DNA from: Myxococcales bacterium
Lineage (GTDB): Bacteria > Myxococcota_A > UBA9160 > UBA4427
DNA length: 37,598 bases
Reading direction: 5' to 3'
Assembly (NCBI GenBank): GCA_022563535.1
Contig: JADFNE010000042.1
Span: 1 to 37,598, forward strand
Shown: positions 14,713-37,598 of the stretch, piece by piece
Layout: each line of letters opens with the position of its first letter
How positions within the stretch are numbered: position 1 is the stretch's first letter
Program-made: the position numbers and the translations under genes
The notes under the pieces: generated by a model
What the model was told of the DNA's origin: nothing
Databases searched by the model: none
What the model saw: the letters and a program-made list of their open reading frames with translations, nothing else

Positions 14713-14722
14713 GAAGTAGGTT

Positions 14723-16947: not shown

Positions 16948-19074
16948 ATGAATTCTCCCCCCCAATTCATTTATCGCATCCGGTGTCGTTTTCGGTCGTC
17001 GCTCATTTTGAGCATCGCCTGGGGACTTGTCCTCTGCATGGACTCATCCGTTGCCTGGTCACAAGCAGAGTTGCAGACAGGGCCGGAGCCGGTCATCGAT
17101 CCTGCGGCTGTCGAAACGGCCGCTGGAGAAGCCGCCACGCCCGATAACGCTTTTGCAGAATCCACTGCGGAAGAAGTCGACACTTCCGAAACGGATGGGG
17201 TCGAAGGTGAGACGGGCGACGCCAACGAACTGGTTGTTGAATCGCCTGAGACCGAGTCACTCGAGGTTGTCACTTATCACGTAACACGGTTCCAGTTGGA
17301 CTACTTGAACGAAACGCCCAACGCTCCTTCGATCTCATTTTTGCGTAGGACTCGGATCAAGCTCGGAATGATGGAGTTGATCGAATGGGAGGGCAACGTC
17401 TTCGTAGCCCCGGAGAAGTCCGAAGCGCAGGTGGACTTCAGGCTGGACGAAATTCCGGCCGATAGTCCCACCCACTTTACCGCGGCGGCACTGGCCAGCA
17501 TCAACCGGCAGATCGTCAAGGCGGTATCGCACGAGGGGCTCGGGAGCATCATCGTTGCGCCAGACGGAGAAGACATCGGCTTCACTACGGGACAGGATTT
17601 GAGGGCGGAGGGGAATACAACCCTGCGCCTCACAATTTTTCTGCCGACCATCAAGGAACTTCAGAGCTTCGCCACCGGCGAACGAATTCCCGAAGTCGAC
17701 GCGACGAACAACCGGGCACACTCCCGCATTCTGAGGGAATCGCCGGTGCAGGCGGGGGAGTTGTTCTGGCCGAGCGAGGTGGATGACTACGTTGCGCGAC
17801 TCAACCGCCACCCGGGACGCCGCGTAATCGCACAACTCTCGCCCTCAAATGACAAACAGCAGCTGTACCTCGACTATCAGATTACGGAATCGAAGCCTTG
17901 GATCACTTACGGCTCGATTTCGAATACCGGTGGCGAGCAGACCGGGCGGACGCAGGCACGGGTCGGCTTCGTGGATTTGCAGCTGACTAATCGCGACGAC
18001 ATCTTTGCCCTCGACTATGTGATGAATACCAATGGCAATGTTCGGGCAACCAATGGCATCTATCAGTTGCCTCTCTGGATCGATACCGTACGGATGGAAG
18101 TTGCCGGATCGTATGCAGACTACGAAGGAACAGCTGGCGAGTTTCAGAGCCCAACCGATATCGACGGAAAGCAGGCCCGAGGCGAATTGAATCTCGTCTA
18201 CAACTTCTTCCAGTTCGAAGAATATTTCCTCGACGTGATGGGTGGGGCCACGTACGAATACATTGAGACCAAGACCAAGACCAGCGGCCTGGTTACCGGC
18301 GGAACCGAAAACTTCTTGATCGCCCGTCTCGGTCTCAGGTTGGAGCGCAAGAACCCAAAGCTGAAACTTCGAGCCAGTACATGGGTCGATTTCGGAACGC
18401 TGAACCACGACGACTCGGACCCGATGTCGGACTTCAACAATCTTGTGCGCCTGTTGCCGGACGACAACCCGGTAGTTCTGCGTTGGGATGCAAAGTTAGC
18501 GTTCTTCATCGATGGCCTCCTGGCCGATCCGAAGAACCCGAGCCCAACTCTCGCCCACGAATTTGTCATCCGATACCGGGGGCAGAGCACCTTCGACAAA
18601 TATCGCCTGCAGTCCCATGCGCTTCAGATTGCCGGCGGGATGGAAACCGTAAGGGGATACGAACAGGGAGTGACGGCGGGGGACTCGGTTCATCTCGGCA
18701 GCCTCGAGTACCGCTACCACGTGCCTCGCATCTTCAAACCGCGCCCTGCTACCACCGTTTTTCCCTTGATTGGCGAGTTCGCGATTGCCCCTCGTGGTCC
18801 CGGAGAGCGTCCCGATTGGGATTGGGTCCTGAAGGTCTTCTATGACGTGGCCAGCATCCGTCAGACAGATCGTCAGGTGGCCGAGTTCAATGACACCTTG
18901 CAGTCGGTTGGCGTTGGGACCGAGTTGTTCATCAAAAGGAATGTTCAGCTGCGCCTCGATTGGGGAATTGCTCTCGAAGACGCTCACTGCACCCCCCTTG
19001 GTGGTGGTGGATCCCTGTGCACGATCAAGAAGCACGAATCGGAGATTAATTTTTTGGCGAGCATCTTCTACTGA
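16948..19074 (+). CDS. Two-partner secretion outer-membrane transporter (TpsB, FhaC/ShlB family)
   Basis: This predicts 708 residues. It has an N-terminal signal peptide (basic RIRCRFRS, then a hydrophobic stretch ending near SVAWSQA). An acidic, Ala/Glu/Thr-rich low-complexity linker runs to about residue 100. A POTRA-type region is followed by a C-terminal beta-barrel. The diagnostic L6-loop motif VRGY is at 568-571 inside GGMETVRGYEQG, and the protein ends in an aromatic residue (ASIFY) as barrel proteins do. It would move the partner exoprotein encoded next, at 19241, across the outer membrane. FhaC-type proteins are usually shorter; the extra length is mostly the acidic linker. GGAG lies 10 bases before the ATG. 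A 7-C run sits in codons 3-6. Confidence 0.9.
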   Translation: MNSPPQFIYRIRCRFRSSLILSIAWGLVLCMDSSVAWSQAELQTGPEPVIDPAAVETAAGEAATPDNAFAESTAEEVDTSETDGVEGETGDANELVVESPETESLEVVTYHVTRFQLDYLNETPNAPSISFLRRTRIKLGMMELIEWEGNVFVAPEKSEAQVDFRLDEIPADSPTHFTAAALASINRQIVKAVSHEGLGSIIVAPDGEDIGFTTGQDLRAEGNTTLRLTIFLPTIKELQSFATGERIPEVDATNNRAHSRILRESPVQAGELFWPSEVDDYVARLNRHPGRRVIAQLSPSNDKQQLYLDYQITESKPWITYGSISNTGGEQTGRTQARVGFVDLQLTNRDDIFALDYVMNTNGNVRATNGIYQLPLWIDTVRMEVAGSYADYEGTAGEFQSPTDIDGKQARGELNLVYNFFQFEEYFLDVMGGATYEYIETKTKTSGLVTGGTENFLIARLGLRLERKNPKLKLRASTWVDFGTLNHDDSDPMSDFNNLVRLLPDDNPVVLRWDAKLAFFIDGLLADPKNPSPTLAHEFVIRYRGQSTFDKYRLQSHALQIAGGMETVRGYEQGVTAGDSVHLGSLEYRYHVPRIFKPRPATTVFPLIGEFAIAPRGPGERPDWDWVLKVFYDVASIRQTDRQVAEFNDTLQSVGVGTELFIKRNVQLRLDWGIALEDAHCTPLGGGGSLCTIKKHESEINFLASIFY

Positions 19075-19196
19075 GCATGAGCACCGCGCGCGAGTAGCGG
19101 GCGGCAATGGATGACCGTGACTGCCGGTGAATGACGAATCCAAACAGTCAGGAAAGCTGAGAGAAGAGAAATCGAATGGATGGCTAGAGAGCAAAG

Positions 19197-19218
19197 CGAA
19201 TTGGCAAAGGCCAATTCG
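19197..19218 (+). promoter_or_regulatory. Perfect 9-bp hairpin with AAAG tetraloop in the tpsA leader
   Basis: CGAATTGGC at 19197-19205 and its exact complement GCCAATTCG at 19210-19218 flank a four-base AAAG loop. It ends 9 bases before the GTGGGAGG ribosome site of the exoprotein gene. No T-run follows. It may limit translation or set transporter-to-exoprotein ratio by RNA processing or attenuation. Confidence 0.5.
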
Positions 19219-19240
19219 ATCGGAAGTGGGAGGTTCGAAC

Positions 19241-22200
19241 ATGAGCTGGTTGCGGACATCGAAAAATTTTTACGGATTGCGCGGTGAAATCACTGAATGG
19301 ATGAACCTGTTGTGTGTAGCTTGGCTTGTCGGATGGGTTGCTGTGGGGCTTCCGAAACTTGCGTTCGCCGGGCCTGAGGGTGAGCAGGTCATCCATGGCG
19401 ACGTGACCATCGACCGGATAGACGACCTCACGGAAATTATCGCCTCAGATGGCGCCATCATTCAATTCGACAGCTTCGACATCCATCATCACGAGACTGT
19501 GGAGTTCATCCAACCGAATGCACAATCTTCTGTTCTCAATCGTATCTACGGCAGCCCCACCCAGATCATGGGCACCCTCAGGGCCAATGGCCGCGTCTAC
19601 CTGCTCAACTCTGCGGGTGTTTTCTTTGGCGGCACCGCCATCGTCGACGTCGGTGGGTTGTATGCCGTCGCCGGATCGATGTCGGACCGAGACTTTCTCG
19701 ATCAGGTAGATCGCTTTACAAGTTTGACTGGAGATGTGGAGAACTGGGGCGAGATCCGCGGCAACGTCGTTAACTTGATTGGCCGGTTCGTTGCGAATCA
19801 CGGATTGATCGTTGCAGATTCAGGATTGGTCGCCATGGTGGCCGGGGACGAGGTCGCAATTGGACACCTCGGCGGAAATATCGTCGTCAAGATCGACTCT
19901 CAACGGGATGTGTCTGAAGCGAGTGTTCCCGGTGTCGAGAACAGTGGTTTGATCGATGCCGCCGGGGGACGTGTCATTCTGGCCGCCGGAGATCTCTACT
20001 CACTCGCCGTGCGTCATCCGGGGATGATTCGGGCCGATCGGATCGCGCTGGAAGGAGGCGCAAACGGTCAGGTCCTGGTCCAGGGAACCCTCGACGCTTC
20101 GAATCTTGAAATTGGGCAGACCGGGGGCACGGTGCATGTGCTCGGAGACGAGGTTGTCATCGACGGTGCGACCATCGATGCATCCGGTGAAGCGGGTGGC
20201 GGAGAGATCTTGGTTGGCGGTGACTACCTCGGTGGTGGCGATGTGCGCACCGCGTCGAGGACCTACGTTGGTTCAGACAGCGAGCTGCTCGCTCGGGCGA
20301 CCGGCGACGGCGATGGTGGCAAGATCATCGTCTGGTCTGACACCGACACCCGGGTTTTCGGCACGATCGACGCGCGGGGAGGTGAACTCGGCGGCGACGG
20401 TGGCTTTATCGAGACCTCGAGCAAGGATCGACTCTATGTCTTTGGGGCCCACGTGGACGCGAGCGCGTCGCAAGGCGCAGGCGGGACCTGGTTGCTCGAT
20501 CCTCGCAACGTGGTGATCAGCAACGACCCCACATCCCCCGATGTTCTCCTCATTGGCGATACCTACTTTCCGGCTGATCCGGCCGCTGCCAGCGATCCGC
20601 CTTCTGTCGTTCAGGCACTCGATATTGAAACGACACTGAACCTCGGAGGCAACGTAACGATCACCACCCAGAGTCTCCCCGATGACTCCGGTCTGCAATT
20701 CGGCGACATCGCAGTAAACGCCAGCATCACGAAGACGATGGGGGGTGAGGCGACCCTTACTCTCGACGCGGGCCGTGATATCGCGATCAACGATACGATC
20801 TCATCGACGCTAACGGGCAATGAGTTACACGTAGACCTCCAAGCGGGCGGAAACGTCGATATCAACGCGACCATCACTACCAACGGCGGGACATTTGCGA
20901 GCAGTGGTGTCGATCTAAACATGACCGCAGGGGCCCCGATTGATACGAGGGCCGGCGTTGACGGCACGATAACCCTGAATCATTCGGGCAATGCAACCCT
21001 GTTCACAGCGGGTGGAATCGACTTTGCGGCGAGTACCGTGGGCGGCGACCTGTCCGCGACGGCCGCTACCGGGAGCATCATCAATAGTGGCGCGCTTGTC
21101 GTGACTGGGAATGCGATTTTCACGACGGTTACCGACGACGCGGATATCACACTCGGGACGGTGAACCCGCTGACGGTTGGAGGCACGATCGCGGTCAACA
21201 CGAACGGAAGCGCCGGCCACGCGACGATCGAGCACGATGGTGGCATCGAAGTCGTGGCCAGCACTGTTGGCGGCGACCTCACGGTTAGCTCGGCGACCGG
21301 CGACGTGACGGTGTCGGGTCAGCTGTTGAGCGGTGGAGACACGGGGATCGAGCTTCGGTCGGATACGGGCAACATCATCCTTGCCGTAGACATGAACGAG
21401 TTGCTGATGGCCAGCGGCGGAGTGGGTTCGGGAGTGACGCTGAGTGCGGTAGCGGGTGCGATCACAGTGGCCGCCGATTCCCCCTTAACCGCGGAGATCG
21501 TCGCTTCTAACGTGACTCTCGTCGCAGAGCAGATCGTGAACCCGTTGGATATCGGGGGCGCGACGACGCTTACGCTGCGGGATACGGGCGTCGGTGAGAT
21601 CCAGGTGCGGGAGCACGGAGTCCAGACGCTAGCCGAGACGTTCTTGACGCTCGACGCGGCGGCGCAGGGAACGCTGACGGTCGACTACGTCGGCGACAGC
21701 AATACTTTGACCGTGACGACCATGGCCGCAGGGGGTACGACGACGGTCGCTACAGACGTCAACGGTGCGCCGAGCAACCTGACGCTGACGACTGCCAATA
21801 CGGAGATCGATTTTGCAGCCACAACGATCACCGGTGACACCGGTGACCTGACTGCGACGGCAACCGACGGGAGCATCACCAACATCACCGGCGCGCTTGT
21901 CGTGACTGGGAATGCGATTTTCACGACGGTTACCGACGACGCGGATATCACACTCGGGACGGCGGACCCGCTGACGGTTGGAGGCACGATCTCGGTCAAC
22001 ACGACGGGATCGGGTGGTGACGTCGATCTGGTCACGACGGGTGGGATCGACTTTGCAACAAGCAACATCGGAGGCGACTTCAAGGTCACGGCTGGTAAGA
22101 TTTCAATGGGAGTCGTGAACAGCGGTGGGTCGCAGACCTATGCGGGCCCAGTGGTCTTGACACGAGACGCCGTCCTCACTGCAGGTTCTGACAGCGACGG

Positions 22201-23599
22201 CGATGCATTTTTGTTCATGGACACGATAGTCAGCGACACCACGATAGTCGACCCGAATGGTTTCGGTCTCACGATCGCTGCCGCGGGCAACGTCCAATTT
22301 GACAATGACATCGGTAGAGACGAAAACGGCGAATCGCGTCTCGATTTCTTCAAGATTCAGATCGACGCTACAACGGAGGGCCTGGTTCGGTTCGCGAAGC
22401 TCACAGGGGAACAGGTCCTGTGGGCAGTCAACAGTATCAGTCTCAATCCAGCTGGACGGACGCCGAGCACAGATCCCAGCGGAAATCGTGCGACGATGTT
22501 CCGGACAGTTAACGGAGACCTGACGCTCGATTCCGCGAACGGTGACATCACCATGGGGCGAGGCGAACGACTCAGTGTGCCGGGTGATCTCTTGATAAAT
22601 GCGCTGAGCGGAACCGTCACGATTGCAGATCTAACCGCTCGCACGCTCGAGATCGGCGCCGGAAGCGTCACCATATTGTTGCGCACCGCCAGCCTGGTCG
22701 ACCTCGCTGACCCGGAGGCCGATCCAGTCAAAGATACTGGTGTGGATATCGTCGCCAATACAATTCTGATCTCGGCCACAGACGACACGTTGACGCTCGA
22801 CGGGATAGGTGTCGCGACCTTCGGCGTGAGGCACGAGCCGGGCTCGGCGAGTGACCAAGGTGAATTGACGATTCCGACTATCTTGGTCACATCACAGCCA
22901 CTACCCGAAGACAAGTTGCGGCTCGCCGCGATCAATCTGGACAGTACGCCGATCCTGACCTCCGATATCTTGCGCGATTCGGTTGGCTACGACGGCATTG
23001 CACGCGGTGCGTTCCAACAAACGACCTTCCCAACGCTTCCAATTTCACCCGAGCCGCCCGAGCCGCCCGAAGTTGGCCCGGCACCTCCGAAGAAGGAGGA
23101 AATTCTTGCTTGGATGCAGTGTGCTCAATTAGAGGAGGGCGATGAAGTTTCCGAGGCCTGTAAAGAAGTGATGGCTCTGGCCGGGGACTTCGAGGAGGAT
23201 ACGTTCCGAGATTCAAGTGCTCTCGGAGTTCTCCAACTCTACCGGGCGCTGATTCGTTCCAGCGCTACAACCGAGCGAATTGGACCGGCCTTTCAGACCG
23301 CGATTCGCACATATCGCGAGGAGGCAAATAGTGATCAAGTTCTGGATAAACTCTTCCGACAATTCCTGACGGAATCTGCGGGGCACGAGGAGGCCGGAGA
23401 GTATCTCCAGCAGTTTGAGTTCCTCTTTCAACAGCTGAAGCTATTGAATATGTTGCCAAATGACTACGCTGCTATCCGAGATGAGCTTTTGATCGAGATT
23501 GTGCAAGAGCTTGAATTGACTGAGTTGGCCACCGTCGAGGGACTTAGCGCCACGTTCATTCCAAGTGAAACTCTAGACACGAGTGCTCCAAGAGTCTGA
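19241..23599 (+). CDS. Two-partner secretion exoprotein (TpsA, filamentous haemagglutinin-like)
   Basis: This predicts 1452 residues. I choose ATG 19241 over an in-frame ATG at 19127 because GGGAGG lies 7 bases before it and the product begins with a long signal peptide (cleavage likely after AFA, residue 43). The TPS/haemagglutination domain follows, with VLNRIYGSPTQIMGTLRANG (from about 98) and VYLLNSAGVFFGG, closely matching the usual NRV-G-PSQI-GTL and NPNGI-FG motifs. The middle is a long Gly/Thr/Asp-rich beta-helix with repeated GGDL and ATxGSI units. A Pro/Glu linker (about 1267-1283) leads to a helical, cysteine-containing C-terminal domain of ~170 residues that I do not recognise. 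It is predicted to be secreted through the barrel encoded just upstream. Confidence 0.9.
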   Translation: MSWLRTSKNFYGLRGEITEWMNLLCVAWLVGWVAVGLPKLAFAGPEGEQVIHGDVTIDRIDDLTEIIASDGAIIQFDSFDIHHHETVEFIQPNAQSSVLNRIYGSPTQIMGTLRANGRVYLLNSAGVFFGGTAIVDVGGLYAVAGSMSDRDFLDQVDRFTSLTGDVENWGEIRGNVVNLIGRFVANHGLIVADSGLVAMVAGDEVAIGHLGGNIVVKIDSQRDVSEASVPGVENSGLIDAAGGRVILAAGDLYSLAVRHPGMIRADRIALEGGANGQVLVQGTLDASNLEIGQTGGTVHVLGDEVVIDGATIDASGEAGGGEILVGGDYLGGGDVRTASRTYVGSDSELLARATGDGDGGKIIVWSDTDTRVFGTIDARGGELGGDGGFIETSSKDRLYVFGAHVDASASQGAGGTWLLDPRNVVISNDPTSPDVLLIGDTYFPADPAAASDPPSVVQALDIETTLNLGGNVTITTQSLPDDSGLQFGDIAVNASITKTMGGEATLTLDAGRDIAINDTISSTLTGNELHVDLQAGGNVDINATITTNGGTFASSGVDLNMTAGAPIDTRAGVDGTITLNHSGNATLFTAGGIDFAASTVGGDLSATAATGSIINSGALVVTGNAIFTTVTDDADITLGTVNPLTVGGTIAVNTNGSAGHATIEHDGGIEVVASTVGGDLTVSSATGDVTVSGQLLSGGDTGIELRSDTGNIILAVDMNELLMASGGVGSGVTLSAVAGAITVAADSPLTAEIVASNVTLVAEQIVNPLDIGGATTLTLRDTGVGEIQVREHGVQTLAETFLTLDAAAQGTLTVDYVGDSNTLTVTTMAAGGTTTVATDVNGAPSNLTLTTANTEIDFAATTITGDTGDLTATATDGSITNITGALVVTGNAIFTTVTDDADITLGTADPLTVGGTISVNTTGSGGDVDLVTTGGIDFATSNIGGDFKVTAGKISMGVVNSGGSQTYAGPVVLTRDAVLTAGSDSDGDAFLFMDTIVSDTTIVDPNGFGLTIAAAGNVQFDNDIGRDENGESRLDFFKIQIDATTEGLVRFAKLTGEQVLWAVNSISLNPAGRTPSTDPSGNRATMFRTVNGDLTLDSANGDITMGRGERLSVPGDLLINALSGTVTIADLTARTLEIGAGSVTILLRTASLVDLADPEADPVKDTGVDIVANTILISATDDTLTLDGIGVATFGVRHEPGSASDQGELTIPTILVTSQPLPEDKLRLAAINLDSTPILTSDILRDSVGYDGIARGAFQQTTFPTLPISPEPPEPPEVGPAPPKKEEILAWMQCAQLEEGDEVSEACKEVMALAGDFEEDTFRDSSALGVLQLYRALIRSSATTERIGPAFQTAIRTYREEANSDQVLDKLFRQFLTESAGHEEAGEYLQQFEFLFQQLKLLNMLPNDYAAIRDELLIEIVQELELTELATVEGLSATFIPSETLDTSAPRV
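21089..21203 (+). repeat. Intragenic tpsA repeat, copy 1 (115 bases)
   Basis: First copy of a near-identical 115-base unit inside the exoprotein gene; the second begins 801 bases later, exactly 267 codons. It encodes a beta-helix stretch starting ALVVTGNAIFTTVTDDADI. I count three base differences between the copies, far fewer than between other rungs, so duplication or gene conversion is recent. Confidence 0.85.
21890..22004 (+). repeat. Intragenic tpsA repeat, copy 2 (115 bases)
   Basis: Second copy of the unit at 21089-21203, in the same frame. Two of the three differences fall together, changing VNP to ADP in the protein, and the third changes Ala to Ser. Recombination between the copies would delete or add 267 codons without a frameshift. 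Confidence 0.85.
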
Positions 23600-23740
23600 C
23601 GGCTGGCAGAGCTTTGGTTCGGAGTTTGGTAACGTACTGTTCTCATCGAATCCCCCCCGGGATAGGTGTGCTGAATGCGCGAGTTTCGTGGCGGTGAATC
23701 AAGGACCCTTGGTCGAGTGATTTGCAGGAAGGTTGGAGCG

Positions 23741-24703
23741 ATGCTGTATCGGGCTCGCTTGAGCCTTCTCGTAGTTGTTGTACTACTGGCCTGTGGGGGC
23801 ACGAGTAAATCTGTTCAACCGGACATCGAGCAAACTAGGCAGAGCTTCGACATTGCCGGTTATCGGGCTGATCAAGTAGATCCGGCACAAGGTTCACTGG
23901 ATGTCGAAATCAGGGTCTTGCGCCCGAATTTCGAGTCGAGTGAAACCGAACCCATGGAAGAGGCAGACGCGGAGCTGCGTTCTGCCTTGAGCTGGGCTCT
24001 GATGGAGTACCGGGCCGCTTTCGTGGGCCGCGATCTCGAGAAGCTGCAGTCCATCTGGTCGATGGGCGCAGTCGAGCGTATGTTGATCAAGAATGCCTGG
24101 TCGAGCTGTGAGAACGTCGACCTGTCCATTGAGACCTCAAAAATGTTGGTTGCCGGTCGTAGCGCTTTGGTCGACTTTGACCAGTGGCTGAGGTTCCGGT
24201 GCCCCGGCGAAGCAAAGACGCGCCATTCGATGCTATCGGCCTCGCTCGAGTTCAATGGCGATGGCAAGTGGGCAATTTCGAGAATTGGCAGTCGTGGTCC
24301 TCAGCCGACCCTTCGAAAGACAGCTGCGGGTCCCGCTCATCTCGCGCCGGATCGGCAGAATCCCGAGACCGAAGCAACCATGCATCGCGCGCTAGAGGCC
24401 CTGAGCGACTATGAATCGGCATTGCAGCGGTGCGATCTCGACGGTCTCGCACGCGTCTGGATCATGACCGATCTCGAGCGGCAGATTCTACAGGGATTGT
24501 GTTTCCGCCGCGGGCGGCTCGAAGTGACGATCTCAGAGCCGCAAGTTTCGACAAATCAAGGGCGGGTCAGTGTCGATTTTATCCACGATTTCACCAGCCA
24601 GCGACAGGGAAATTCGACTCAGACTCGCTCGAGGTTGACCGCGCTTCTGGTTGAGCGAGACGACGGAAATATGACCATCTGGAAGGTCCGCGCCACCCAG
24701 TAA
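23741..24703 (+). CDS. Lipoprotein with two tandem copies of the kinase C-terminal (NTF2-like) domain
   Basis: This predicts 320 residues from ATG 23741, with AGGAAGG 8 bases upstream. The N-terminus MLYRARLSLLVVVVLLAC is a signal peptide with a lipobox and acylated C18. Residues 79-184 and 215-320 are two copies of one domain. Both resemble kinase residues 532-642: a helix with a YESAL/YRAAF-like segment, DLxxLxxxWxM, an ER or QR pair, then VDF and a strand before the C-terminal W. The second copy reads LARVWIMTDLERQIL against LNRVWSMSRFQRVFL in the kinase. It is predicted to sit in the periplasm on a membrane and may bind the same ligand as the kinase or pair with it. No enzyme motif is visible. 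Confidence 0.85.
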   Translation: MLYRARLSLLVVVVLLACGGTSKSVQPDIEQTRQSFDIAGYRADQVDPAQGSLDVEIRVLRPNFESSETEPMEEADAELRSALSWALMEYRAAFVGRDLEKLQSIWSMGAVERMLIKNAWSSCENVDLSIETSKMLVAGRSALVDFDQWLRFRCPGEAKTRHSMLSASLEFNGDGKWAISRIGSRGPQPTLRKTAAGPAHLAPDRQNPETEATMHRALEALSDYESALQRCDLDGLARVWIMTDLERQILQGLCFRRGRLEVTISEPQVSTNQGRVSVDFIHDFTSQRQGNSTQTRSRLTALLVERDDGNMTIWKVRATQ

Positions 24704-25450: not shown

Positions 25451-26776
25451 GTGGGGTGGCGTACTGCAGGAGCGGCGCTCCTGTTGTTTTTGCTCATGTC
25501 CTCGAGTGCCCTGATTGCCCAAGAGCGTGCTCCGCTTTCATTACAGAAGGTCGCTCGGATCGGCTTTGACGACGCCGTGGCCGGGACGGATGGCGAACGG
25601 GTCGTAGACCTCTACGTGAGGGTGCTCACCGAGTACGGTTCCCCGATTCGCAATCTCTCGCCTCAAGCCCTCGAGGTCTGGCAGGACGACGAGCGAATCG
25701 ACGTCGATAAATTGAGCGTGCGCTCACTCGACACGACCGGTCGCGGAATCACCGCAGTGCTGGCGATCGACGCCAGCGGAACAATGCGGGGCGAGCCCTT
25801 TGCGAAGGCCCGAGAAGCCGCGATTTCTTTTCTCGACCAATTGCGTCCAGAGGACCGCGTCGCAATCGTTACATTTTCAGAGGACATCAATATCGTGTCG
25901 CGCTTTGGGCAGCAGCGCGCTGAGACCCGTCTGGCCCTGCGTGATCTCGAGATCGATATCGAGCGCAGCCGGCATACGCTTTTATTTGACGGGGCATTCC
26001 GTGCCCTTAATCTGATTCGTACAACGTCGGGGCTACCGCGACGCGGGTTCGTAATCTTGTTCTCCGACGGCAAGGATGACGGAAGCGACCGAACTCGTGA
26101 CGAGGTTCTCGCCGAGGCGAAAGGACGCAATCACGAATCTCACATCCTTATTTTTTCTGTGGGATACGCGCGCTTCGGCGGGGCCGGCCTCGACGAGATG
26201 CGCAAGCTCGCAGAGAAATCTGGTGGCGAATTCATGGAAGCGGTCTCGATCGCCGAGGTGAGCGACTTCTTCGATCTGGTCGGCCAGCAGATGACGCAGA
26301 GCTACCTCGTGACCTACCCATCGAATATGGACGGAGAGCAGCACAGGATTCGAATTACCGTTGCAGGACAATCGGGAGAACGAACAGCCTATTTTCCAGA
26401 CATCGCCGGCCCGCGTTGGCCCTGGCTGGTTGCTGTAGGGGCTCTGGGGCTGATCCTGCTGGTCGTCGAGTTGGTGCGCAGGATTGGGACGGTCGGACGA
26501 ATTTCTATCGCATCCGGTCCCTTTGCGGGAACCCAGGTTGCTCTCCGTAAAGGCAAGACTCTAATTGGAGCGTTGGAGGACAACGATCTCGTGTTGGCGG
26601 GAACAAAAGTCTCTCGCTACCACGCGGAAATCGTCGTCCGGGGTCGAATGGTTGAGATTATCGATCTCGACTCCACTAATGGTACTCAGATCAACGGCCA
26701 ATTCGTGAAGCGCGGCCCCCTCGAGTTGGGCGACACAATCACCGTCGCCGATGTCGAAATACTCTTCGACAGGTAG
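25451..26776 (+). CDS. VWA domain - transmembrane - FHA domain protein
   Basis: This predicts 441 residues starting at GTG 25451, two bases after the FHA gene stop. A signal sequence (1-23) leads to a von Willebrand A domain with a MIDAS site: DASGT (D107, S109, T111) plus FSDGKDD (D206). One membrane helix lies at about 324-342. A C-terminal FHA domain (350-441) has VSRYHAEI and STNGTQING motifs. The likely topology puts the metal-dependent adhesion-type VWA domain in the periplasm and the phosphothreonine reader in the cytoplasm, so it could couple an envelope contact to kinase output. Its stop forms half of a palindrome shared with the stop of the opposing gene. Confidence 0.9.
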   Translation: MGWRTAGAALLLFLLMSSSALIAQERAPLSLQKVARIGFDDAVAGTDGERVVDLYVRVLTEYGSPIRNLSPQALEVWQDDERIDVDKLSVRSLDTTGRGITAVLAIDASGTMRGEPFAKAREAAISFLDQLRPEDRVAIVTFSEDINIVSRFGQQRAETRLALRDLEIDIERSRHTLLFDGAFRALNLIRTTSGLPRRGFVILFSDGKDDGSDRTRDEVLAEAKGRNHESHILIFSVGYARFGGAGLDEMRKLAEKSGGEFMEAVSIAEVSDFFDLVGQQMTQSYLVTYPSNMDGEQHRIRITVAGQSGERTAYFPDIAGPRWPWLVAVGALGLILLVVELVRRIGTVGRISIASGPFAGTQVALRKGKTLIGALEDNDLVLAGTKVSRYHAEIVVRGRMVEIIDLDSTNGTQINGQFVKRGPLELGDTITVADVEILFDR

Positions 26777-26778
26777 CG

Positions 26779-28128
26779 CTAGCCGAGTAACGATCGCATG
26801 CCGACTACTCGAGCGCTGTCTCCGCCGACGATTCCAACCAGACAAACGAAGCCGGCGTCATTCAATTCCTTGATCCGCGCTTCGCTCAACAGCTCGGCGA
26901 CCGGGCCGATGGACCGAATTTTGTCCTGGCTGCGGAACACATGTATTGGAAGTGAAGTGATTTCGCCGAATCCGCCGCCTCGTGCGTCCCAACTCGAAAG
27001 TGCAATCCCCAACGCCAGCGCGGCACTGCCCCAGAGATAGCGAGACCGCTCTGGTTCCAACCTGGCTTCAGCTTCTTCGTCGAGTTCCTCGAACCTAAAC
27101 TCGTCTATGGGGTCGGTCTCTTCGCCGTAGGGCAGCCGGAGCAGGATCTGAGGATGCGCGAGCATCACATTGTTACTCGCGCTTTGAGTTAACTGTTGTC
27201 GCCATATCGGTGATGGCAGCCCACCGTCCCTCATCAGCGCGGGCTTGACCCCAATTAGCAACGTTGCGCTGCACTCAGCGGCCAAGACTGACAGATGGGA
27301 ACAGGCCAGCTGCCCTTGGTCGTCGTCATTGATCTCCATGGCGCAGAGCATGTGAGAGAATCTAGTGGCCAACAGTCCGGGGTCGGCACGCCAACCCATA
27401 CGTTCGACAAGTGTGTCGCGCCTATCCGGTTGCTCTGCATCTTCGACAGTTTCGTCGAGTCGTAAGTCAAAGAGATTCAGTGGTATGTCTTTTCCCGCTC
27501 GTACGATTTCGCGCACAGCACACCAGCTGGCTTCGAGGCTCTGGAATTTTGGGTGGTGGAGTATCGCTCGAATGCGTCGCCCCAACTCGTCATCAATCGC
27601 TGCGCGCCGCGTGTCTTCTCGCGCGAAGTCGTTTCTCGCTGCGGATTCTTCGACGATGGCTCGGACCAAATTGTCGAAGCTAGAAAGAGACGAGCTGGAG
27701 TTGCGGGTCGGTGCAGTGGATGGAGTGAGGATCGATTCGAGCAGGTCTTCGTCTGCTACGGGTTCGGTGCTAGTCGCAGGGATGTCCGCGCTGTTGGGAG
27801 AATTGGTTTCGATTTCCTGGGAGGCTCCCGCCTCCTCGAGGTGTACGCGCATTGCTGCGGGGTTCGCGACTTCAGCACGTGCATAGAGCAGCGCCTTGAG
27901 CGCAGGAACACGTTCGGCAATTTGGTCGGGCCGAAAGTCGTCGAAGCTCGAAATACGCAACGAGCGACAAAAGGGAAGCTGCAGAAGAGCTACCGGCCGG
28001 ATGCTTCGGATTGCGTCATCGAGGGTATCGCGGTCGACCCTGACGAAGCGCCGCTCAGCAAGTGGTTTACATGCGCTGCCGGCGAAGTCGGCCAGCACGC
28101 AAAGCGAAATGATCTCGTGTCTTTTCAT
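26779..28128 (-). CDS. Divergent TssB-TssC sheath-like fusion protein, C-terminally short
   Basis: This predicts 449 residues. The start at ATG 28128 has GGAG 10 bases upstream. Residues 5-88 resemble TssB: RRFVRVDRDTLDDAIRSIRP matches [19 protein letters not shown] of the tssB product here. A Ser/Thr/Pro/Glu-rich linker (about 100-150) follows. Residues 178 to the end resemble TssC: ILHHPKFQSLEASW against ILHHEDFQKLEASW, LRLPYGEETDPIDEF against RRLPYSPENNPVEDF, then YLWGSAA and LPIHVFRS. The protein stops near the point equal to about residue 365 of TssC, so roughly the last 130 residues are absent. It may be a sheath-associated accessory, cap or decoy rather than a sheath subunit. It is transcribed away from tssA. 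Confidence 0.85.
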   Translation of the reverse strand: MKRHEIISLCVLADFAGSACKPLAERRFVRVDRDTLDDAIRSIRPVALLQLPFCRSLRISSFDDFRPDQIAERVPALKALLYARAEVANPAAMRVHLEEAGASQEIETNSPNSADIPATSTEPVADEDLLESILTPSTAPTRNSSSSLSSFDNLVRAIVEESAARNDFAREDTRRAAIDDELGRRIRAILHHPKFQSLEASWCAVREIVRAGKDIPLNLFDLRLDETVEDAEQPDRRDTLVERMGWRADPGLLATRFSHMLCAMEINDDDQGQLACSHLSVLAAECSATLLIGVKPALMRDGGLPSPIWRQQLTQSASNNVMLAHPQILLRLPYGEETDPIDEFRFEELDEEAEARLEPERSRYLWGSAALALGIALSSWDARGGGFGEITSLPIHVFRSQDKIRSIGPVAELLSEARIKELNDAGFVCLVGIVGGDSARVVGMRSLLG

Positions 28129-29778: not shown

Positions 29779-30363
29779 ATGGCCGACAGCGTATTTGACA
29801 AGAAAGCCCGGGTGCGAGCACCGCGCGTCCACATTACCTACGAGGTCGAGACAGGCGGAGCCCAGGTCATGAAGGAAATTCCCTTTGTGATGGGTGTGAT
29901 GTCGGATCTTTCGGGACAGCCGAAAGAGGCGCTCGCCAAACTCAAGGATCGAAAATTCGTAGAAATCGATCGCGACAACTTTGACGACGCCCTCAAGAGC
30001 ATGAAGCCGCGGCTCGCGATGCGGGTCGACAATACACTGGCTGACGACGGCAGTGAATTGTCGGTGGAGTTGAACTTTGAAAAGCTCGCAGATTTTTCTC
30101 CCGAAGGAGTCGTCAAGCAGGTTGAGCCCCTCAACAAGCTGCAAGACGTGCGAAATCAGTTGAAGGATCTACTGGGTCGGATGGAGGGAAACGATCGTCT
30201 CGAAGAGCTCCTGGCCGAAGTCTCGTCCAATGACGCAGTGCGCGACAAGTTGGCTGGCGCGTTGGGTAGTGAAGCAAGCGGCGACGCCGCAGGAGAGGGT
30301 GAAGGCGACAGTTCCAGCGAAGCGGGCGGCGACGAAGCTCCGGCCGATGGAAAGGAGAGCTAA
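29779..30363 (+). CDS. tssB: T6SS contractile sheath small subunit TssB
   Basis: This predicts 194 residues with AAGGAG 8 bases before the ATG. It matches TssB/VipA/Igl[39 protein letters not shown] and a C-terminal helix ([20 protein letters not shown]). TssB pairs with TssC to form the sheath that contracts to drive the Hcp tube. The C-terminal ~40 residues are a Gly/Ser/Ala/Glu-rich tail longer than needed for the fold. The N-terminal region is the site at which TagJ binds in systems that have tagJ, and tagJ is present downstream. Confidence 0.97.
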
Positions 30364-30365
30364 TC

Positions 30366-31850
30366 ATGGCGAAAGCAAAGAAAGTCAAGATTGACCAACT
30401 CGAGGAACTCGAGAGCGACGACCTTCTTGCCCAGATGATCGATACGGGCATCAAGCCCAAGGGTGACGATCAACGAAATCGCGCTCAGGACCTGATCAAG
30501 AACTTTGTGGATACGATTCTGGATCCAGGTACGAAGATCGACAAGAGTGTGGTCAAGACGATCAATGCGCGCATCGCGGCGATCGACGAGATCATGTCAA
30601 AGCAAGTCGACAAGATCCTGCACCATGAGGATTTTCAAAAGCTCGAGGCATCGTGGCGGGGTCTCAACCATCTGATCATGAACACCGAAACGTCCGAGAC
30701 GCTCAAAATCAAGGTTTTGAACATCTCAAAGAAGGACTTGAAGAACGACTTCGGTGCAGCTGCCGAGTTTACCGAATCGGCTCTTTGGAAGAAAATCTAC
30801 GAGTACCAGTTCGGCCTTTTCGGTGGCGACCCATTTGCTACTTTGATTGGAGACTTCCAGTTCGACAAGGGTCCGCAAGATATTGCGCTGCTGTCATCCA
30901 TCACTGAGGTGGCCGCGGGTGCGCACGCGCCATTCGTCTCGGGTGTAGCACCCGAGATGTTTGGCATGGAAAGCTTTACCCAGATGCCGGACCCGCGAGA
31001 CTTGTCCAAGATCTTCGACAAGAGCAATCCAGAGAACACGAAGTGGCTCTCCTTCCGCGATTCGGAGGACTCTCGCTTCTGCGCCCTGGTTCTGCCCCAT
31101 ACACTGAGGCGCTTGCCCTACTCGCCGGAGAACAATCCAGTCGAGGACTTCAATTATGAAGAGGACGTGAGCGGTTCTCACGAGTCGTACTTGTGGGGCA
31201 ACGCAGCGTACGACTACGCCAACCGACTGACGGCTGCCTTCGCGAAGCATCATTGGTGCGTCGCGATACGTGGACCCGAGGGCGGTGGTATGGTCGAAGA
31301 CTTGCCCGTGCACGTGTTCAAATCTCGCGAAGGCGACGTGAGTGCCAAGATCCCCACTGAGGTGGCGATCCCGGATACTCGCGAAAAGGAACTCTCTGAC
31401 CTGGGCTTCATCGGCTTGCTGCACTGCCAGAATACGGACTTCGCCGCATTCTTCGGTGGTAACTCGGTGCAGCGAGCCAAGAAGTATGACACGCCGGAAG
31501 CAACAGCCAACGCCCAGCTTTCAAGTCAGATTCCGTATTTGATGTGCACGTCGCGCATCGCCCACTACCTCAAGTCGATCTGTCGAGACAAAATAGGTTC
31601 GTTTTTGTCTCGCGGCGATTGTGAAATGTTCCTGAATAGATGGATCACGAACTACGTGTTGGCCCAGGACGATGGAACTCAGGACGCCAAAGCGGCGAGG
31701 CCCCTGCGAGAGGCCCGCATCGACGTGGTCGACGACAAGGCTCGGCCCGGTTGTTACAAGGCGATCGCGTACTTGAAGCCCCACTTCCAACTTGAAGAAA
31801 TTGGCGTTTCATTGCGTCTGGTGGCGGATCTTCCGGCGCCGATAGGTTGA
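30366..31850 (+). CDS. tssC: T6SS contractile sheath large subunit TssC
   Basis: A 494-residue protein starting two bases after tssB with AAGGAG inside the tssB end. Family landmarks in order: ILHHEDFQKLEASWRGL, FGLFGGDPFATLIGD, LRRLPYSPENNPVEDF, YLWGNAAY, the GPEGGGMVEDLPVHVF block, and the C-terminal PLREARIDVVDDKARPGCY with LKPHFQLEEIGVSLRLV. Length is normal for TssC/VipB. It builds the sheath with TssB and is recycled by ClpV (TssH). Confidence 0.98.
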   Translation: MAKAKKVKIDQLEELESDDLLAQMIDTGIKPKGDDQRNRAQDLIKNFVDTILDPGTKIDKSVVKTINARIAAIDEIMSKQVDKILHHEDFQKLEASWRGLNHLIMNTETSETLKIKVLNISKKDLKNDFGAAAEFTESALWKKIYEYQFGLFGGDPFATLIGDFQFDKGPQDIALLSSITEVAAGAHAPFVSGVAPEMFGMESFTQMPDPRDLSKIFDKSNPENTKWLSFRDSEDSRFCALVLPHTLRRLPYSPENNPVEDFNYEEDVSGSHESYLWGNAAYDYANRLTAAFAKHHWCVAIRGPEGGGMVEDLPVHVFKSREGDVSAKIPTEVAIPDTREKELSDLGFIGLLHCQNTDFAAFFGGNSVQRAKKYDTPEATANAQLSSQIPYLMCTSRIAHYLKSICRDKIGSFLSRGDCEMFLNRWITNYVLAQDDGTQDAKAARPLREARIDVVDDKARPGCYKAIAYLKPHFQLEEIGVSLRLVADLPAPIG

Positions 31851-31928: not shown

Positions 31929-32417
31929 ATGCCTAGCGATATTTACGCGAAGTTTGGACAAATTGAAGGTGAAAGCACAGACGGTGTATACAAGGGCCAA
32001 TGCTCGTTGAATTCAATTTCGCATGAGCTGGAAAACGAGGCGAGTGGGGATCGGAGCACGGGTGGAGGCGGCGCCAAGAGCATTGCAACGCATAGGGAAA
32101 TTACGTTTACGAAGAGTTTCGATGCAGCGTCTCCAGGGTTGATCAAGGCTTGTTTGATCGGTGAACACATGGATATCGTAATTTCCCTGTGTCGACAGAG
32201 TGGCAAAGACAAGCAGGAGTATCTCCAGTACGCACTCACGGATGCGTACCTTTCGGGGCTTAGTCACCAATCAGCAGACGGTGGCGGCGTTGAGGAAGTT
32301 GGGGTGATCAACTACGGAACCATCAAGTGGACCTATGACAAGACCGATACCAAGGGGTTTTCCTTAGGCAAAATGGAAGCCAGTTGGAACCGGATCAAAA
32401 ATTGCGAAGAAATATAG
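31929..32417 (+). CDS. hcp: T6SS inner tube protein Hcp (TssD)
   Basis: This predicts 162 residues, with AAGGAG 11 bases upstream. It shows the Hcp1-family pattern: DIYAKFGQIEGES at the start, ITFTKSFDAASPGLIKACLIG in the middle, then YALTDAYLSGLSH and IKWTYDKTD near the end. Hexameric rings stack into the tube expelled by sheath contraction. It is separated from tssC by 78 bases and from tagJ by 151 bases that include a hairpin, which would allow extra hcp transcript relative to downstream genes. Confidence 0.97.
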   Translation: MPSDIYAKFGQIEGESTDGVYKGQCSLNSISHELENEASGDRSTGGGGAKSIATHREITFTKSFDAASPGLIKACLIGEHMDIVISLCRQSGKDKQEYLQYALTDAYLSGLSHQSADGGGVEEVGVINYGTIKWTYDKTDTKGFSLGKMEASWNRIKNCEEI

Positions 32418-32568: not shown

Positions 32569-33396
32569 ATGACTGCACGGGAACTCTTCGATCAAGGACG
32601 TCTGGAAGAGGCGATCTCCACCCAGAATGAAGTGGTGAAACTCCAACCGACCAATCTCGATGCGCGTCATGAACTCTCGGTCTATCTCTGTTTCGCCGGA
32701 AATCTCGATCGCGCATTTCTGCAGCTCAATGTGATGGGCCAGCAGAATCCAGAGTTGGCGAAGTCGAGTGATGTTTATCGCAGTCTATTGATCGCCGACC
32801 TTCAGCGGCGCAAGGCTTATCAAGAAGACGTAGATCCCCTATTGCCACCCGATTGTCCGTCGCATGTCGAAGCGCGCCTGGCCGCACTGCACGCCCGCAG
32901 GACGGGAGACGAGAACGCCGCGAGCGCTGCCCTCGAGCAAGCCGCCCAATCCGAATGGAACCGCCCAGGTAAACTCAACGGCGAAATGTTTTTGGGCGTT
33001 CGAGACTTCGACGATCTACTTGGTTCTGTGCTCGAAGTCTACGCTGGTGAAAATTATCTCTGGATGCCCTTCGAGCACATCCGCAGGCTCAAGATCAACG
33101 AACCCAAGCATTTACTCGACCTGCTCTTCGTTCCCGCGGAGCTAGAAGATTTCAACGGTGCGGAGGCGTCGGTGCATTTGCCCACCGTTTATGAGGGTTC
33201 GCATTTGTCGGAGGATCGTCAGTTGCGAATCGGGCAGAAGACGGACTGGGTCGAGGTGCCGGGTATCGGTTTCTGTGGAGTGGGACAGAAGCTCCTGTTC
33301 AGCGCCACCGAGGGCGAAACGCGCGAGACAGGTCTCTTGGAGGTCCGCTCGCTCGAGTTCGAGTCTTCGACCCCGGATGGATCCGTCGTTGGCTGA
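32569..33396 (+). CDS. tagJ: T6SS accessory protein TagJ (ImpE/SciE family)
   Basis: This predicts 275 residues with GGAG 6 bases before the ATG. The N-terminal third is TPR-like (LFDQGRLEEAISTQNEVVKLQPTN), and the C-terminal part carries the ImpE block with GVRDFDDLLGSVLEVYAG, YLWMPFEHIRRLKI and LLDLLFVPAEL. In P. aeruginosa HSI-1, TagJ (HsiE1) binds TssB and ClpV and is thought to modulate sheath disassembly. Its position between hcp and tssE matches clusters of that type. It overlaps the tssE start by 20 bases. Confidence 0.93.
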   Translation: MTARELFDQGRLEEAISTQNEVVKLQPTNLDARHELSVYLCFAGNLDRAFLQLNVMGQQNPELAKSSDVYRSLLIADLQRRKAYQEDVDPLLPPDCPSHVEARLAALHARRTGDENAASAALEQAAQSEWNRPGKLNGEMFLGVRDFDDLLGSVLEVYAGENYLWMPFEHIRRLKINEPKHLLDLLFVPAELEDFNGAEASVHLPTVYEGSHLSEDRQLRIGQKTDWVEVPGIGFCGVGQKLLFSATEGETRETGLLEVRSLEFESSTPDGSVVG

Positions 33397-33880
33397 GCGT
33401 CACAACGATGCGCTGCGACCGTCGATTCTCGACCGGTTGATGGCCGGAGAAACGGGAGCGGGAGCCCGCGCCGCATACGAATACATCGGCGTGCGGGAGT
33501 TGCGGAACTCCGTTGCGCGGGATCTCGAGTGGTTGCTCAACACGAAGTTCACCCAATCTCTAGACCTGGATCAGTTTCCTGAGGCGCAGAATTCAATCTT
33601 GACCTATGGCGTTCCCGACTTCTCCACGTATTCCTGGCGAAATGCTTCGGATGCCCATTCGATTGCTCGAATCCTTGGAGACACGATCCGTCGATTCGAG
33701 CCGAGGCTTCTGCCTCGCAGTATCAAGGTCGAAGTTCTGCCGAACCCGGATATCGAAAATTTTTCGATCGCGTTTCGTATCGAAGCGATCCTCAATGTCG
33801 ACCCCATTCGCGAGACCGTGAGCTTCGACGTGGCGATCGATTTCGAAAGTACCTCCGTCTACGTGAAGGGGGCGGACTGA
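33377..33880 (+). CDS. tssE: T6SS baseplate protein TssE (gp25-like)
   Basis: This predicts 167 residues. The start at ATG 33377 lies within the end of tagJ; the longer open frame upstream is antisense-like and Arg-rich. The product starts MDPSLAERHNDALRPSILDRL, the usual LRPSLLDRL opening, followed by ELRNSVARDLEWLLNTK, ILTYGVPDFS and the gp25 core (IEAILNVDPIRETVSFDVAIDF). It forms the baseplate wedge with TssF, TssG and TssK and starts sheath polymerisation. Its stop shares a base with the tssF ATG, so translation is coupled. Confidence 0.95.
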   Translation: MDPSLAERHNDALRPSILDRLMAGETGAGARAAYEYIGVRELRNSVARDLEWLLNTKFTQSLDLDQFPEAQNSILTYGVPDFSTYSWRNASDAHSIARILGDTIRRFEPRLLPRSIKVEVLPNPDIENFSIAFRIEAILNVDPIRETVSFDVAIDFESTSVYVKGAD

Positions 33881-35712: not shown

Positions 35713-36764
35713 AGCGGCTCATGCTGGAGCAGACGGGCCGCTTCGAGTTTCTCCAAGCGGTACGCCTGATGAAGAAGATCTGGCCGGATCGCAAACCCGT
35801 GGGTGGGGATTTCGATCCGCGGGCTGAGGTTGTTCGCTTCGTCACGGATATCTCGCCGGTCTTTGCGAAATCCGACATTCAGGAAGCAGTCGAGCACGAC
35901 GATGGCCGACCCGCCGAGCTTCAGGTGAACTTCATGGGAGTTGCCACCCCGGGGACTTTTGGTGCGCTTCCGCGCCGCTATGCAGAAGAAATTCGCACGC
36001 TGTCGAAACAGAAGAATACGGCGCTCCGCGAGTTTCTAGATCTGTTCAATCATCGAATGATTTCGCTGTTCTACCGGGCTCGGGAGAGGAACCTTCCGAC
36101 GCTGGCTTACGATCGAGGTGGCGACAATGCCTTCGAGAGCGCGCTGTCTGGAATTCTCGGCACCGGGACGCCAGGTTTGGCTGGCCGACTCGCGTTGGAC
36201 GATTGTATGATCATGGGCCGGGCTGGACTGCTCGCCATGAAGCCAATAGGTGTTTCAGCTCTCGCCGGTCTGATTCGAAGCATCTTCGGTCAGCCCGTAG
36301 AGATTGAACAGTTCTGTCCCGCGAATTATCCGATCGAAGTTGACGACCGCAACGCACTCGGTTTCGCAAACTCGGTATTGGGTGAGGATCTCTATCTGGG
36401 CGTCAAAGTTACCCTGGTGCAGTCGAAGATACGGATCTGCCTTGGCCCGATGTCTCGGGAGGCCTACGAAGAATTCCTGCCCCACGGCCCGGGCTTCCGG
36501 CGGCTGGCAGATCTGGTCCACTTCGCGGTCGGCGAAGAGCTCGACTTTGAGATCAAGTTGAGCCTGCTAGCCGAAGATGTGCCGTCGATGCGGCTAGGTG
36601 ACACCAGCCCCGAAGCGGGTCGGCTCGGTTGGTCGAGTTGGATTGGCGACGAGGAACGCAGCGAACCCGCGGAAGACGCAATGATCGATCCGAGATTTAA
36701 TCGCGGCGGTCCAAATTTATACAACGTGGCGCAGCAAATGGCGCAAATGGAGGCAAGACCATGA
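35676..36764 (+). CDS. tssG: T6SS baseplate protein TssG
   Basis: This predicts 362 residues of the ImpH/VasB family. Conserved blocks are FEFLQAVRLMKKI near the start, then VNFMGVATPGTFGALPRRYAEEI, LREFLDLFNHRMISLFYRA and LGEDLYLGVKVTLVQSKIRI. It pairs with TssF in the baseplate wedge. The start at 35676 inside the tssF end is chosen because the product then begins close to the family N-terminus. The stop overlaps the tssH ATG (ATGA). Confidence 0.95.
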   Translation: MVSENGREAASLKRLMLEQTGRFEFLQAVRLMKKIWPDRKPVGGDFDPRAEVVRFVTDISPVFAKSDIQEAVEHDDGRPAELQVNFMGVATPGTFGALPRRYAEEIRTLSKQKNTALREFLDLFNHRMISLFYRARERNLPTLAYDRGGDNAFESALSGILGTGTPGLAGRLALDDCMIMGRAGLLAMKPIGVSALAGLIRSIFGQPVEIEQFCPANYPIEVDDRNALGFANSVLGEDLYLGVKVTLVQSKIRICLGPMSREAYEEFLPHGPGFRRLADLVHFAVGEELDFEIKLSLLAEDVPSMRLGDTSPEAGRLGWSSWIGDEERSEPAEDAMIDPRFNRGGPNLYNVAQQMAQMEARP

Positions 36765-37381
36765 GTGTCGACCTGCGTTCTCTCATCGGACGCCTGAGTC
36801 CGACCACCCGACGTGCGCTCGAAGGTGCTGCGGGACTCGCAATGTCGCTCACCCACTACGACGTCGAGCTCGAGCACTGGCTGGAAAAGATGCTGGAAGA
36901 GTCCGCAGGGGATCTCCCCAAGATCCTGCGCGACTCTGACGTCGAGCCCGATCGATTCATGGCCGATCTCAACCTGGCCCTGAACAGCATGAAGACCGGC
37001 AACGGGCGTCGTCCCGATCTTTCCGAAATCATTGAGCAATTGGCGAGCGAGGCCTGGGTGCTCTGTTCGATCAACTACAACCTCGGCAAGGTAAGATCCG
37101 GCGCGATCCTGTTGGCGGCCCTAAACGATTCTCGTCTCCGCAGACGTCTGGTTGATATCCACCGGCCGGTCGAGAAGATCAACGTTGAGGCCCTGTCCAA
37201 GGACTTTCTGAGCATCGTCGAGGGATCGGCCGAAGACAGAGAGGTCGGGGTTGTCGGTTCGGGGAGTGTGCAGCGCGACCTTTCCCAACCGGGCGCTACC
37301 GGCGCCGGACGAAAGACGCCCGCGCTCGATCAATATACGGTTGATGTGACTGCCCAGGCGCGAGCGGGAGAGATCGATCCC
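36761..37381 (+). pseudogene. tssH: tssH (clpV) AAA+ sheath-recycling ATPase, 5' part only, broken by a junction
   Basis: From ATG 36761 about 207 residues read as TssH/ClpV: MSVDLRSLIGRLSPTTRRALEG and the ClpN repeats (HYDVELEHWLEKMLEES, VRSGAILLAALND). They continue to ALDQYTVDVTAQARAGEIDP, which opens the first AAA+ domain. There the family continues with VLGRD and a Walker A site, but here homology stops abruptly at 37371-37381. The frame stays open to the window end only because it runs antisense through a different gene. ClpV disassembles contracted sheath for reuse. If this junction is real the ATPase is not functional; if it is an assembly or amplification chimera, the true gene is intact elsewhere. 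Confidence 0.85.
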
Positions 37382-37598
37382 ACGCACCTTGGCTCGTCGC
37401 GCGATGTGCGCCTGAGCCGACGGATAACCGAAAAGCATTTTGGGACGGACACGCTCGAGGGCTTCGATGAACTCATCGACACGCGCGTCCGACATCTCGA
37501 ACGCGGGAAGCAACCGAGTGCGAAACAACCGATCCCGAAGCTCGCGAACGCGATCCTGTGCACCGAGCTCGACCGGAGAGCCCCAGATGACGATTTCC
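37371..37598 (-). CDS. CapK/PaaK-like AMP-forming CoA-ligase family fragment
   Basis: The minus strand from the window edge reads EIVIWGSPVELGAQDRVREL, then LLPAFEMSDARVDEFIEAL and RPKMLFGYPSAQAHIARRAK, ending at GIDL. This matches the central part of phenylacetate-CoA ligase/CapK-type adenylating proteins, whose GYPS motif is distinctive. Upstream it runs out of the window; downstream the homology ends at the ATCGAT palindrome, where tssH sequence (opposite strand) begins. It is therefore an internal fragment bounded by a junction. The acyl substrate is unknown. Confidence 0.75.

What the first reader, a model, noticed from the sequence alone, without database searches (positions are those of the whole stretch)
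26779..28128. Single-chain TssB-TssC-like protein that lacks the TssC C-terminus, divergent from a full T6SS operon
Side-by-side reading with the tssB and tssC products of the same window shows TssB-like residues 5-88 and TssC-like residues 178-449 in one protein, joined by a low-complexity linker. It stops where about 130 residues of TssC would still follow, including the strands that link sheath subunits. An intact tssB/tssC pair sits 1.6 kb away. I infer a paralogous, sheath-mimicking accessory: a cap, an assembly regulator, or a fusion that locks one sheath layer. It ends against the VWA-FHA gene, so it belongs with both modules.
Basis: partly seen in the sequence, partly recalled or inferred. 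Interest (0 to 1): 0.8.

Follow-up and report, generated by a model that had tools for sequence, protein, structure and literature searches.

The report
Truncated single-chain T6SS sheath mimic
Next to a bacterial injection machine (type VI secretion system) lies a gene whose protein joins shortened versions of the machine's two sheath proteins and lacks the parts that weave sheath rings together; relatives recur in distantly related bacteria that almost always also carry the machine, so it is probably an undescribed controller of sheath growth or recycling.

Summary
The gene at 26779-28128(-) (alternative start 28167) encodes a TssB core, a disordered linker and the TssC N-domain. It ends at position 365 of 493 of a TssC model, just before the gp25-like C-domain; no frame beyond the stop resumes TssC. 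It is not a sequencing error or a decaying copy: 32 short relatives (Acidobacteriota, Planctomycetota, Gammaproteobacteria, the window's own phylum) form one clade, apart from canonical TssC, and nearly all stop at the same place. A longer sister clade keeps a divergent C-terminal part. 27 of 28 carrier genomes checked hold tssF, even where the gene is unlinked. Close pairs show purifying selection. The predicted structure aligns end to end with single-chain phage/pyocin sheath subunits, minus the N-arm and last ~100 residues, which weave the sheath. RefSeq calls such proteins "T6SS sheath large subunit"; I found no paper describing them. Roseobacter versions carry 500-790-residue acidic tails with LDxLLxxL repeats. 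Best reading: a non-polymerising sheath-subunit mimic acting as cap or brake on sheath growth (mechanism inferred, not shown). Main rival: a ClpV decoy or adaptor, weakened because the window's ClpV has the blocked-groove residues.

The parts
26779..28128 (-). single-chain TssB-core/TssC-N-domain protein, 449 aa (alternative start at 28167 gives 462 aa)
   Evidence: Pfam/NCBIfam, hhalign, AlphaFold2 model pLDDT 80.7, pTM 0.81; homologues start close to this methionine or have a longer N-extension
27863..28104 (-). TssB-like core (about residues 9-88 of 449), including the TssC-binding helix; TssB N-terminal strand absent in the 449-aa form
   Evidence: PF05591 positions 30-121; pLDDT 90-98 across residues 11-90; helix region defined in PMC3840085
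27602..27862 (-). low-complexity linker with one conserved element, DLLESIL, in the position of the TssC N-terminal helix
   Evidence: low pLDDT at 107-145; LLxxIL motif at -48 from the VipB core in most short members; aligned with TssC DLLAQMI
26782..27601 (-). TssC N-domain (VipB, PF05943), ending before the gp25-like C-domain
   Evidence: Z 25.4 over 276 residues with P. aeruginosa TssC1
25451..26776 (+). VWA-FHA gene, convergent, 2 bp from the fusion's stop
   Evidence: PF00092 and PF00498; same convergence in L075 and L077
24828..25448 (+). FHA-domain gene upstream of VWA-FHA
   Evidence: PF00498
28629..29741 (+). tssA, divergent from the fusion gene
   Evidence: TIGR03363 above cut-off
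29779..30363 (+). canonical tssB
   Evidence: PF05591, TIGR03358 above cut-off
30366..31850 (+). canonical tssC, full length
   Evidence: PF05943 plus PF18945, TIGR03355 above cut-off
31929..32417 (+). hcp
   Evidence: PF05638
32569..33396 (+). tagJ (ImpE)
   Evidence: PF07024
33407..33880 (+). tssE (gp25-like); start codon chosen by me inside ORF 33158-33880
   Evidence: PF04965
33880..35712 (+). tssF
   Evidence: PF05947
35676..36764 (+). tssG
   Evidence: PF06996
36761..37598 (+). clpV, N-terminal 279 residues, cut by the contig end
   Evidence: ClpV family built from loci; groove positions Arg6 and Asp86

Best explanation
The protein is a natural, non-polymerising mimic of one sheath subunit. 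TssB core and TssC N-domain fold in one chain as the TssB-TssC heterodimer does (supported by homology and a predicted structure). It lacks the parts that weave rings together: the gp25-like C-domain with its C-terminal strand and, in the 449-aa form, the TssB N-terminal strand (shown by sequence). Inferred: made beside the real subunits, it binds the growing (distal) end of the sheath, or free TssB/TssC, through the outer surfaces it keeps, but offers no socket for the next ring, so it caps or brakes sheath polymerisation. Most relatives keep a strand-like N-terminal extension that could plug into the ring below; the window's clade has lost it and is the most stripped form.
For: Uniform end point at TssC position 354-371 of 493 in the short members measured, bar one poorly matched member at 298. 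32 short members monophyletic (support 0.99), separate from 56 canonical TssC (0.86). dN/dS 0.05-0.22 in close pairs. tssF in 27 of 28 carrier genomes, including those where the gene sits in housekeeping DNA between mnmE and mnmG. In Acidobacteriota all 13 short-fusion genomes listed also have a second, canonical hit, against about 39 of 247 with any hit. Model aligned over 1-449 with pyocin sheath residues 18-283 of 383. Literature: the mesh consists of the TssB N-strand plus TssC C-strand augmenting the TssC C-domain sheet of the disc below; removing either strand still allows heterodimers and foci but abolishes secretion (PMC5924787). TssC residues 1-384 suffice to bind TssB, needing the TssB helix that the fusion keeps (PMC3840085). 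In Acidobacteria the gene abuts tssK (L043, L173); in the window it diverges from tssA.
Against: No experiment; docking on a sheath end is inferred. The window's own clade lacks the N-terminal strand, so it would have to dock by other surfaces. The gene is accessory (about a third of T6SS-positive acidobacterial genomes sampled), so it is no universal cap. One carrier genome (G845) showed neither tssF nor canonical tssC.
Confidence: 0.4

Rival explanations
1. [quoted passage not shown]
For: LLxxIL is the only conserved element in an otherwise variable linker, at -48 from the VipB core, in register with the TssC helix. VipB LLDEIM binds the ClpV groove (PMC4239648). Roseobacter members carry long acidic tails with repeated LDxLLxxL motifs (18 found vs 1.7 expected after shuffling in Leisingera).
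Against: The window's ClpV reads Arg6/Asp86, the charged type whose groove is reported blocked, and its system has TagJ (PMC4239648). The motif is degenerate in several gammaproteobacterial members. LLxxL is a short pattern, and the low-complexity tails may have another role.
Confidence: 0.22
2. Structural adaptor: a ring or bridge between sheath and baseplate or the FHA/TssK apparatus, analogous to the special sheath paralogues at the base of eCIS particles.
For: Gene abuts tssK in L043 and L173 and lies near FHA, kinase and PP2C genes in the window, L041, L164, L093 and others. eCIS and phages use paralogous sheath proteins near baseplate or cap (entries).
Against: Those paralogues keep the C-terminal handshake region (own knowledge), which this protein lacks; threonine-phosphorylation genes are common T6SS neighbours, so the link is weak.
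Confidence: 0.15
3. Chaperone or storage partner for free TssB/TssC subunits between firing rounds.
For: Keeps the parts needed for TssB-TssC binding; one chain gives a fixed 1:1 surface.
Against: Its own TssB and TssC parts should satisfy each other inside the chain, leaving no free site of that kind.
Confidence: 0.1
4. Remnant of a duplicated or fused tssBC without function.
For: The window copy is divergent (20-33% identity to relatives) and missing a loop.
Against: Same architecture across several phyla, one clade, purifying selection in close pairs, intact reading frames, T6SS co-occurrence.
Confidence: 0.05

Closest known systems
TssC/VipB, T6SS sheath large subunit (TIGR03355, PF05943+PF18945)
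   Same: N-domain homologous over its full length; same predicted fold (Z 19-25)
   Different: C-domain absent; scores 88 bits against a cut-off of 271.5; preceded in the same chain by TssB
TssB/VipA, T6SS sheath small subunit (TIGR03358, PF05591)
   Same: core strands and TssC-binding helix
   Different: no N-terminal strand in the 449-aa form, no C-terminal part, below cut-off, fused to TssC
Single-chain contractile sheath proteins (R-pyocin, PVC/AFP, phage)
   Same: TssB-part then TssC-part in one chain, aligned end to end with the pyocin subunit (Z 14)
   Different: N-arm and last ~100 residues (handshake) missing; belongs to T6SS lineages by sequence and context
TagA/TssA-type distal-end proteins
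   Same: proposed site of action and effect (limits sheath polymerisation)
   Different: no ImpA_N domain, no sequence relation found
TagJ/HsiE1
   Same: accessory T6SS protein touching sheath subunits, possibly ClpV
   Different: unrelated ImpE fold; tagJ is a separate gene in the same cluster

Membership tests
TssC (TIGR03355 equivalog) | score above the curated cut-off of 271.5 bits | tested here: not met
   88.2 bits
TssC (TIGR03355 equivalog) | gpW/gp25-like C-domain (PF18945) with C-terminal strand | tested here: not met
   no match; ends at model 365 of 493; nothing downstream
TssC (TIGR03355 equivalog) | VipB N-domain | tested here: met
   PF05943 85.3 bits, cut-off 27; Z 25.4
TssB (TIGR03358 equivalog) | score above the curated cut-off of 97.25 bits | tested here: not met
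   47.1 bits
TssB (TIGR03358 equivalog) | helix that binds TssC | tested here: met
   aligned and predicted as helix, residues 61-88; region defined in PMC3840085
TssB (TIGR03358 equivalog) | N-terminal strand that joins the mesh | tested here: inconclusive
   absent in the 449-aa form and in L074, L075, L077; the 462-aa start adds MSPISILIWSAIT; present as a strand-like extension in most relatives
Contractile sheath superfamily (fold) | sheath subunit core fold | tested here: met
   Foldseek E 1e-14; aligned over 1-449 with pyocin, PVC and phage sheath proteins, Z 11-15
T6SS accessory protein | occurs with a T6SS | tested here: met
   27 of 28 carrier genomes have tssF; exception G845
ClpV-recognised protein | LLDEII-type helix and a ClpV with open groove | tested here: inconclusive
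   LLESIL present, but the window ClpV has Arg6/Asp86
TagA-type sheath cap | ImpA_N domain | tested here: not met
   no Pfam match besides T6SS_VipA and VipB
Sheath cap by function | location at the distal sheath end and effect on length | not testable with these tools
   needs microscopy or genetics

The most novel reading that the evidence does not exclude
An undescribed, phylum-spanning class of T6SS proteins in which a single-chain sheath subunit has been stripped of its weaving strands to become a dedicated terminator or brake of sheath growth (with roseobacter versions carrying long, acidic, motif-repeat tails that recruit many partners, perhaps ClpV).
Probability: 0.35. Interest if true: 0.78.

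Novelty: new variant of a known kind. Interest (0 to 1): 0.62.

Why it matters
How T6SS sheaths stop growing where no TagA cap exists is open, and these proteins are natural counterparts of engineered mesh-null subunits. They are recorded in RefSeq as ordinary TssC, so surveys that count tssC genes or build TssC trees may include them unawares. Cultured carriers (Leisingera, Ruegeria, Eleftheria) make the question testable by gene deletion and microscopy.

Tried and rejected
Sequencing error or frameshift at 26779: rejected, no C-domain in any reverse frame and the same end point in relatives from several phyla. Orphan function outside T6SS: unlikely given co-occurrence, one exception kept (G845; the held genome may be incomplete). 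Phage or eCIS origin: sequence and context are T6SS. PADLOC: no defence-family match. Missing TssM in relatives: PF06761 gave no hit, but a profile built from loci finds a TssM-like gene beside tssK, so not a real absence. Literature searches for native TssB-TssC fusions gave nothing relevant; the library lacks most subscription journals, so this does not prove novelty. Viral contigs were not searched. The alternative start (28167 vs 28128) could not be decided from ribosome-binding sites.

Full report
Check of the observation. Pfam finds T6SS_VipA (TssB) and VipB (TssC N-domain) in it and no VipB_2, while the window's own TssC has both VipB and VipB_2. NCBIfam scores are far below the equivalog cut-offs of both TssC and TssB, so by those criteria it is neither. 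Profile-profile comparison gives 100% probability with TssC over 356 columns and 99.1% with TssB over 107 columns. On a TssC model of 493 positions the match ends at 365; three reverse frames beyond the stop hold no C-domain. The stop lies 2 bp from that of the convergent VWA-FHA gene.

Relatives. One scan of genome contigs and several searches of whole genomes found the same architecture widely. Short members (442-592 aa) occur in the window's phylum (5 genomes in a sample of 379), in at least 13 of 247 genomes of an acidobacterial centre's phylum, in 10 of 274 of the class of the Ketobacter genome, and in a Planctomycetota MAG. With one exception (L163, whose weaker match ends at 298) they end at TssC position 354-371. 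A second, longer set (573-810 aa as ORFs, including uncertain starts) in the window's phylum has a divergent C-terminal part that Pfam does not recognise as VipB_2 in the members tested. A tree of the shared domain separates 32 short members (support 0.99), 16 long members (0.99) and 56 canonical TssC (0.86). Close pairs give dN/dS 0.05-0.22; a distant pair gives 0.40 with large dS.

Link to T6SS. The gene lies in or beside T6SS clusters in the window, L013, L041, L043, L074, L077, L163, L164, L173, L174 and L176, and apart from them in others, for example between mnmE and mnmG in Pyrinomonadaceae. 27 of 28 carrier genomes tested hold tssF. The exception, G845, shows neither tssF nor a canonical TssC. 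Many carriers are close relatives, so this is not 28 independent events. In the window's class the neighbourhood is conserved: fusion and VWA-FHA genes converge tightly in the window, L075 and L077, and FHA, VWA-FHA and two-partner-secretion genes also sit beside tssK-tssL-tssM in relatives. tssK was not found in the window's assembly, probably because the contig ends in clpV and the other operon's contig is missing.

Structure. AlphaFold2 with 27 aligned rows gave mean pLDDT 80.7 and pTM 0.81; the linker 107-145 is disordered. A relative (L014) gave 86.6 and 0.83 with the same layout. Best matches are T6SS sheath large subunits (Z 19-25). Single-chain sheath proteins of pyocin, PVC/AFP and phages align across residues 1-449; for a pyocin entry the aligned range is 18-283 of 383 residues. 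So the chain looks like a single-chain sheath subunit lacking its N-arm and its last hundred or so residues. According to the reviewed structures these are the mesh-forming parts, and deleting either strand in Francisella leaves heterodimers and foci but no secretion (PMC5924787). The TssB helix and TssC N-domain that suffice for TssB-TssC binding are kept (PMC3840085).

Two refinements. First, most relatives carry a short N-terminal extension with a strand-like pattern at about the same distance from the core as the TssB N-strand (for example FESFVSLESEKVGIVEEIPF in L014 beside [19 protein letters not shown] in the window's TssB); the window, L074, L075 and L077 lack it. This was read by eye, and the L014 model does not order it. 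Second, the linker keeps one element, LLxxIL, in register with the ClpV-binding helix of TssC. That would suggest ClpV binding, but the window's ClpV has Arg6 and Asp86, the type whose groove is blocked (PMC4239648).

Cultured members. Plasmid T6SS clusters of Leisingera, Ruegeria and Qingshengfaniella encode the module inside proteins of 1370, 1136 and 1063 aa, with N-terminal tails of about 500-790 residues in which D+E make 28-41% and K+R 0-4%, with repeated LDxLLxxL motifs; Eleftheria has a 592-aa form with a C-terminal tail of the same flavour. RefSeq names all of these 'type VI secretion system contractile sheath large subunit'.

Interpretation. Shown: architecture, conserved end point, clade, T6SS co-occurrence, purifying selection in close pairs, predicted fold. 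Inferred: that it binds sheath ends or subunits and limits polymerisation. I prefer cap/brake (0.40) over ClpV decoy or adaptor (0.22), structural adaptor (0.15), chaperone (0.10) and remnant (0.05). Membership: it belongs to the sheath superfamily by fold but fails defining features of both TssB and TssC, so it should be filed as a separate, undescribed sheath-like T6SS accessory family. No paper in the searched library describes a native fusion.

Noticed in passing
L196:11589-15701, L198:12345-15755, L199:8456-11647: Roseobacter relatives carry roughly 500-790-residue, very acidic N-terminal tails with repeated LDxLLxxL motifs, and an Ion_trans channel gene lies next to them in the T6SS cluster.
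   Followed up: partly
window 16948-23599; also L076 and L202: A two-partner-secretion pair (ShlB/FhaC-like and a TPS-domain protein of 1490 aa) sits inside the kinase/FHA/T6SS neighbourhood; a similar pair lies beside tssKLM in L202.
   Followed up: partly
window 23675-24703: 342-aa protein without a Pfam match that resembles part of the neighbouring Ser/Thr kinase protein; a homologue lies beside the fusion gene in L076.
   Followed up: no
window 12847-16651: PP2C phosphatase and Ser/Thr kinase genes in tandem, a likely threonine-phosphorylation pair for the T6SS.
   Followed up: no
window 36761-37598 and G000: Contig ends inside clpV; tssK was not found in an assembly scored 98% complete, so the second T6SS operon is probably on a missing contig.
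   Followed up: partly
L017, L018, L022, L023, L025, L029, L030, L041 and others: Second, divergent full-length tssC next to the canonical one, reminiscent of the TssC40/TssC41 pair I recall from Agrobacterium.
   Followed up: no
G845 (L162, L200): Gammaproteobacterial genome with the short fusion but no tssF or canonical TssC found; either incomplete or a real T6SS-independent case.
   Followed up: partly
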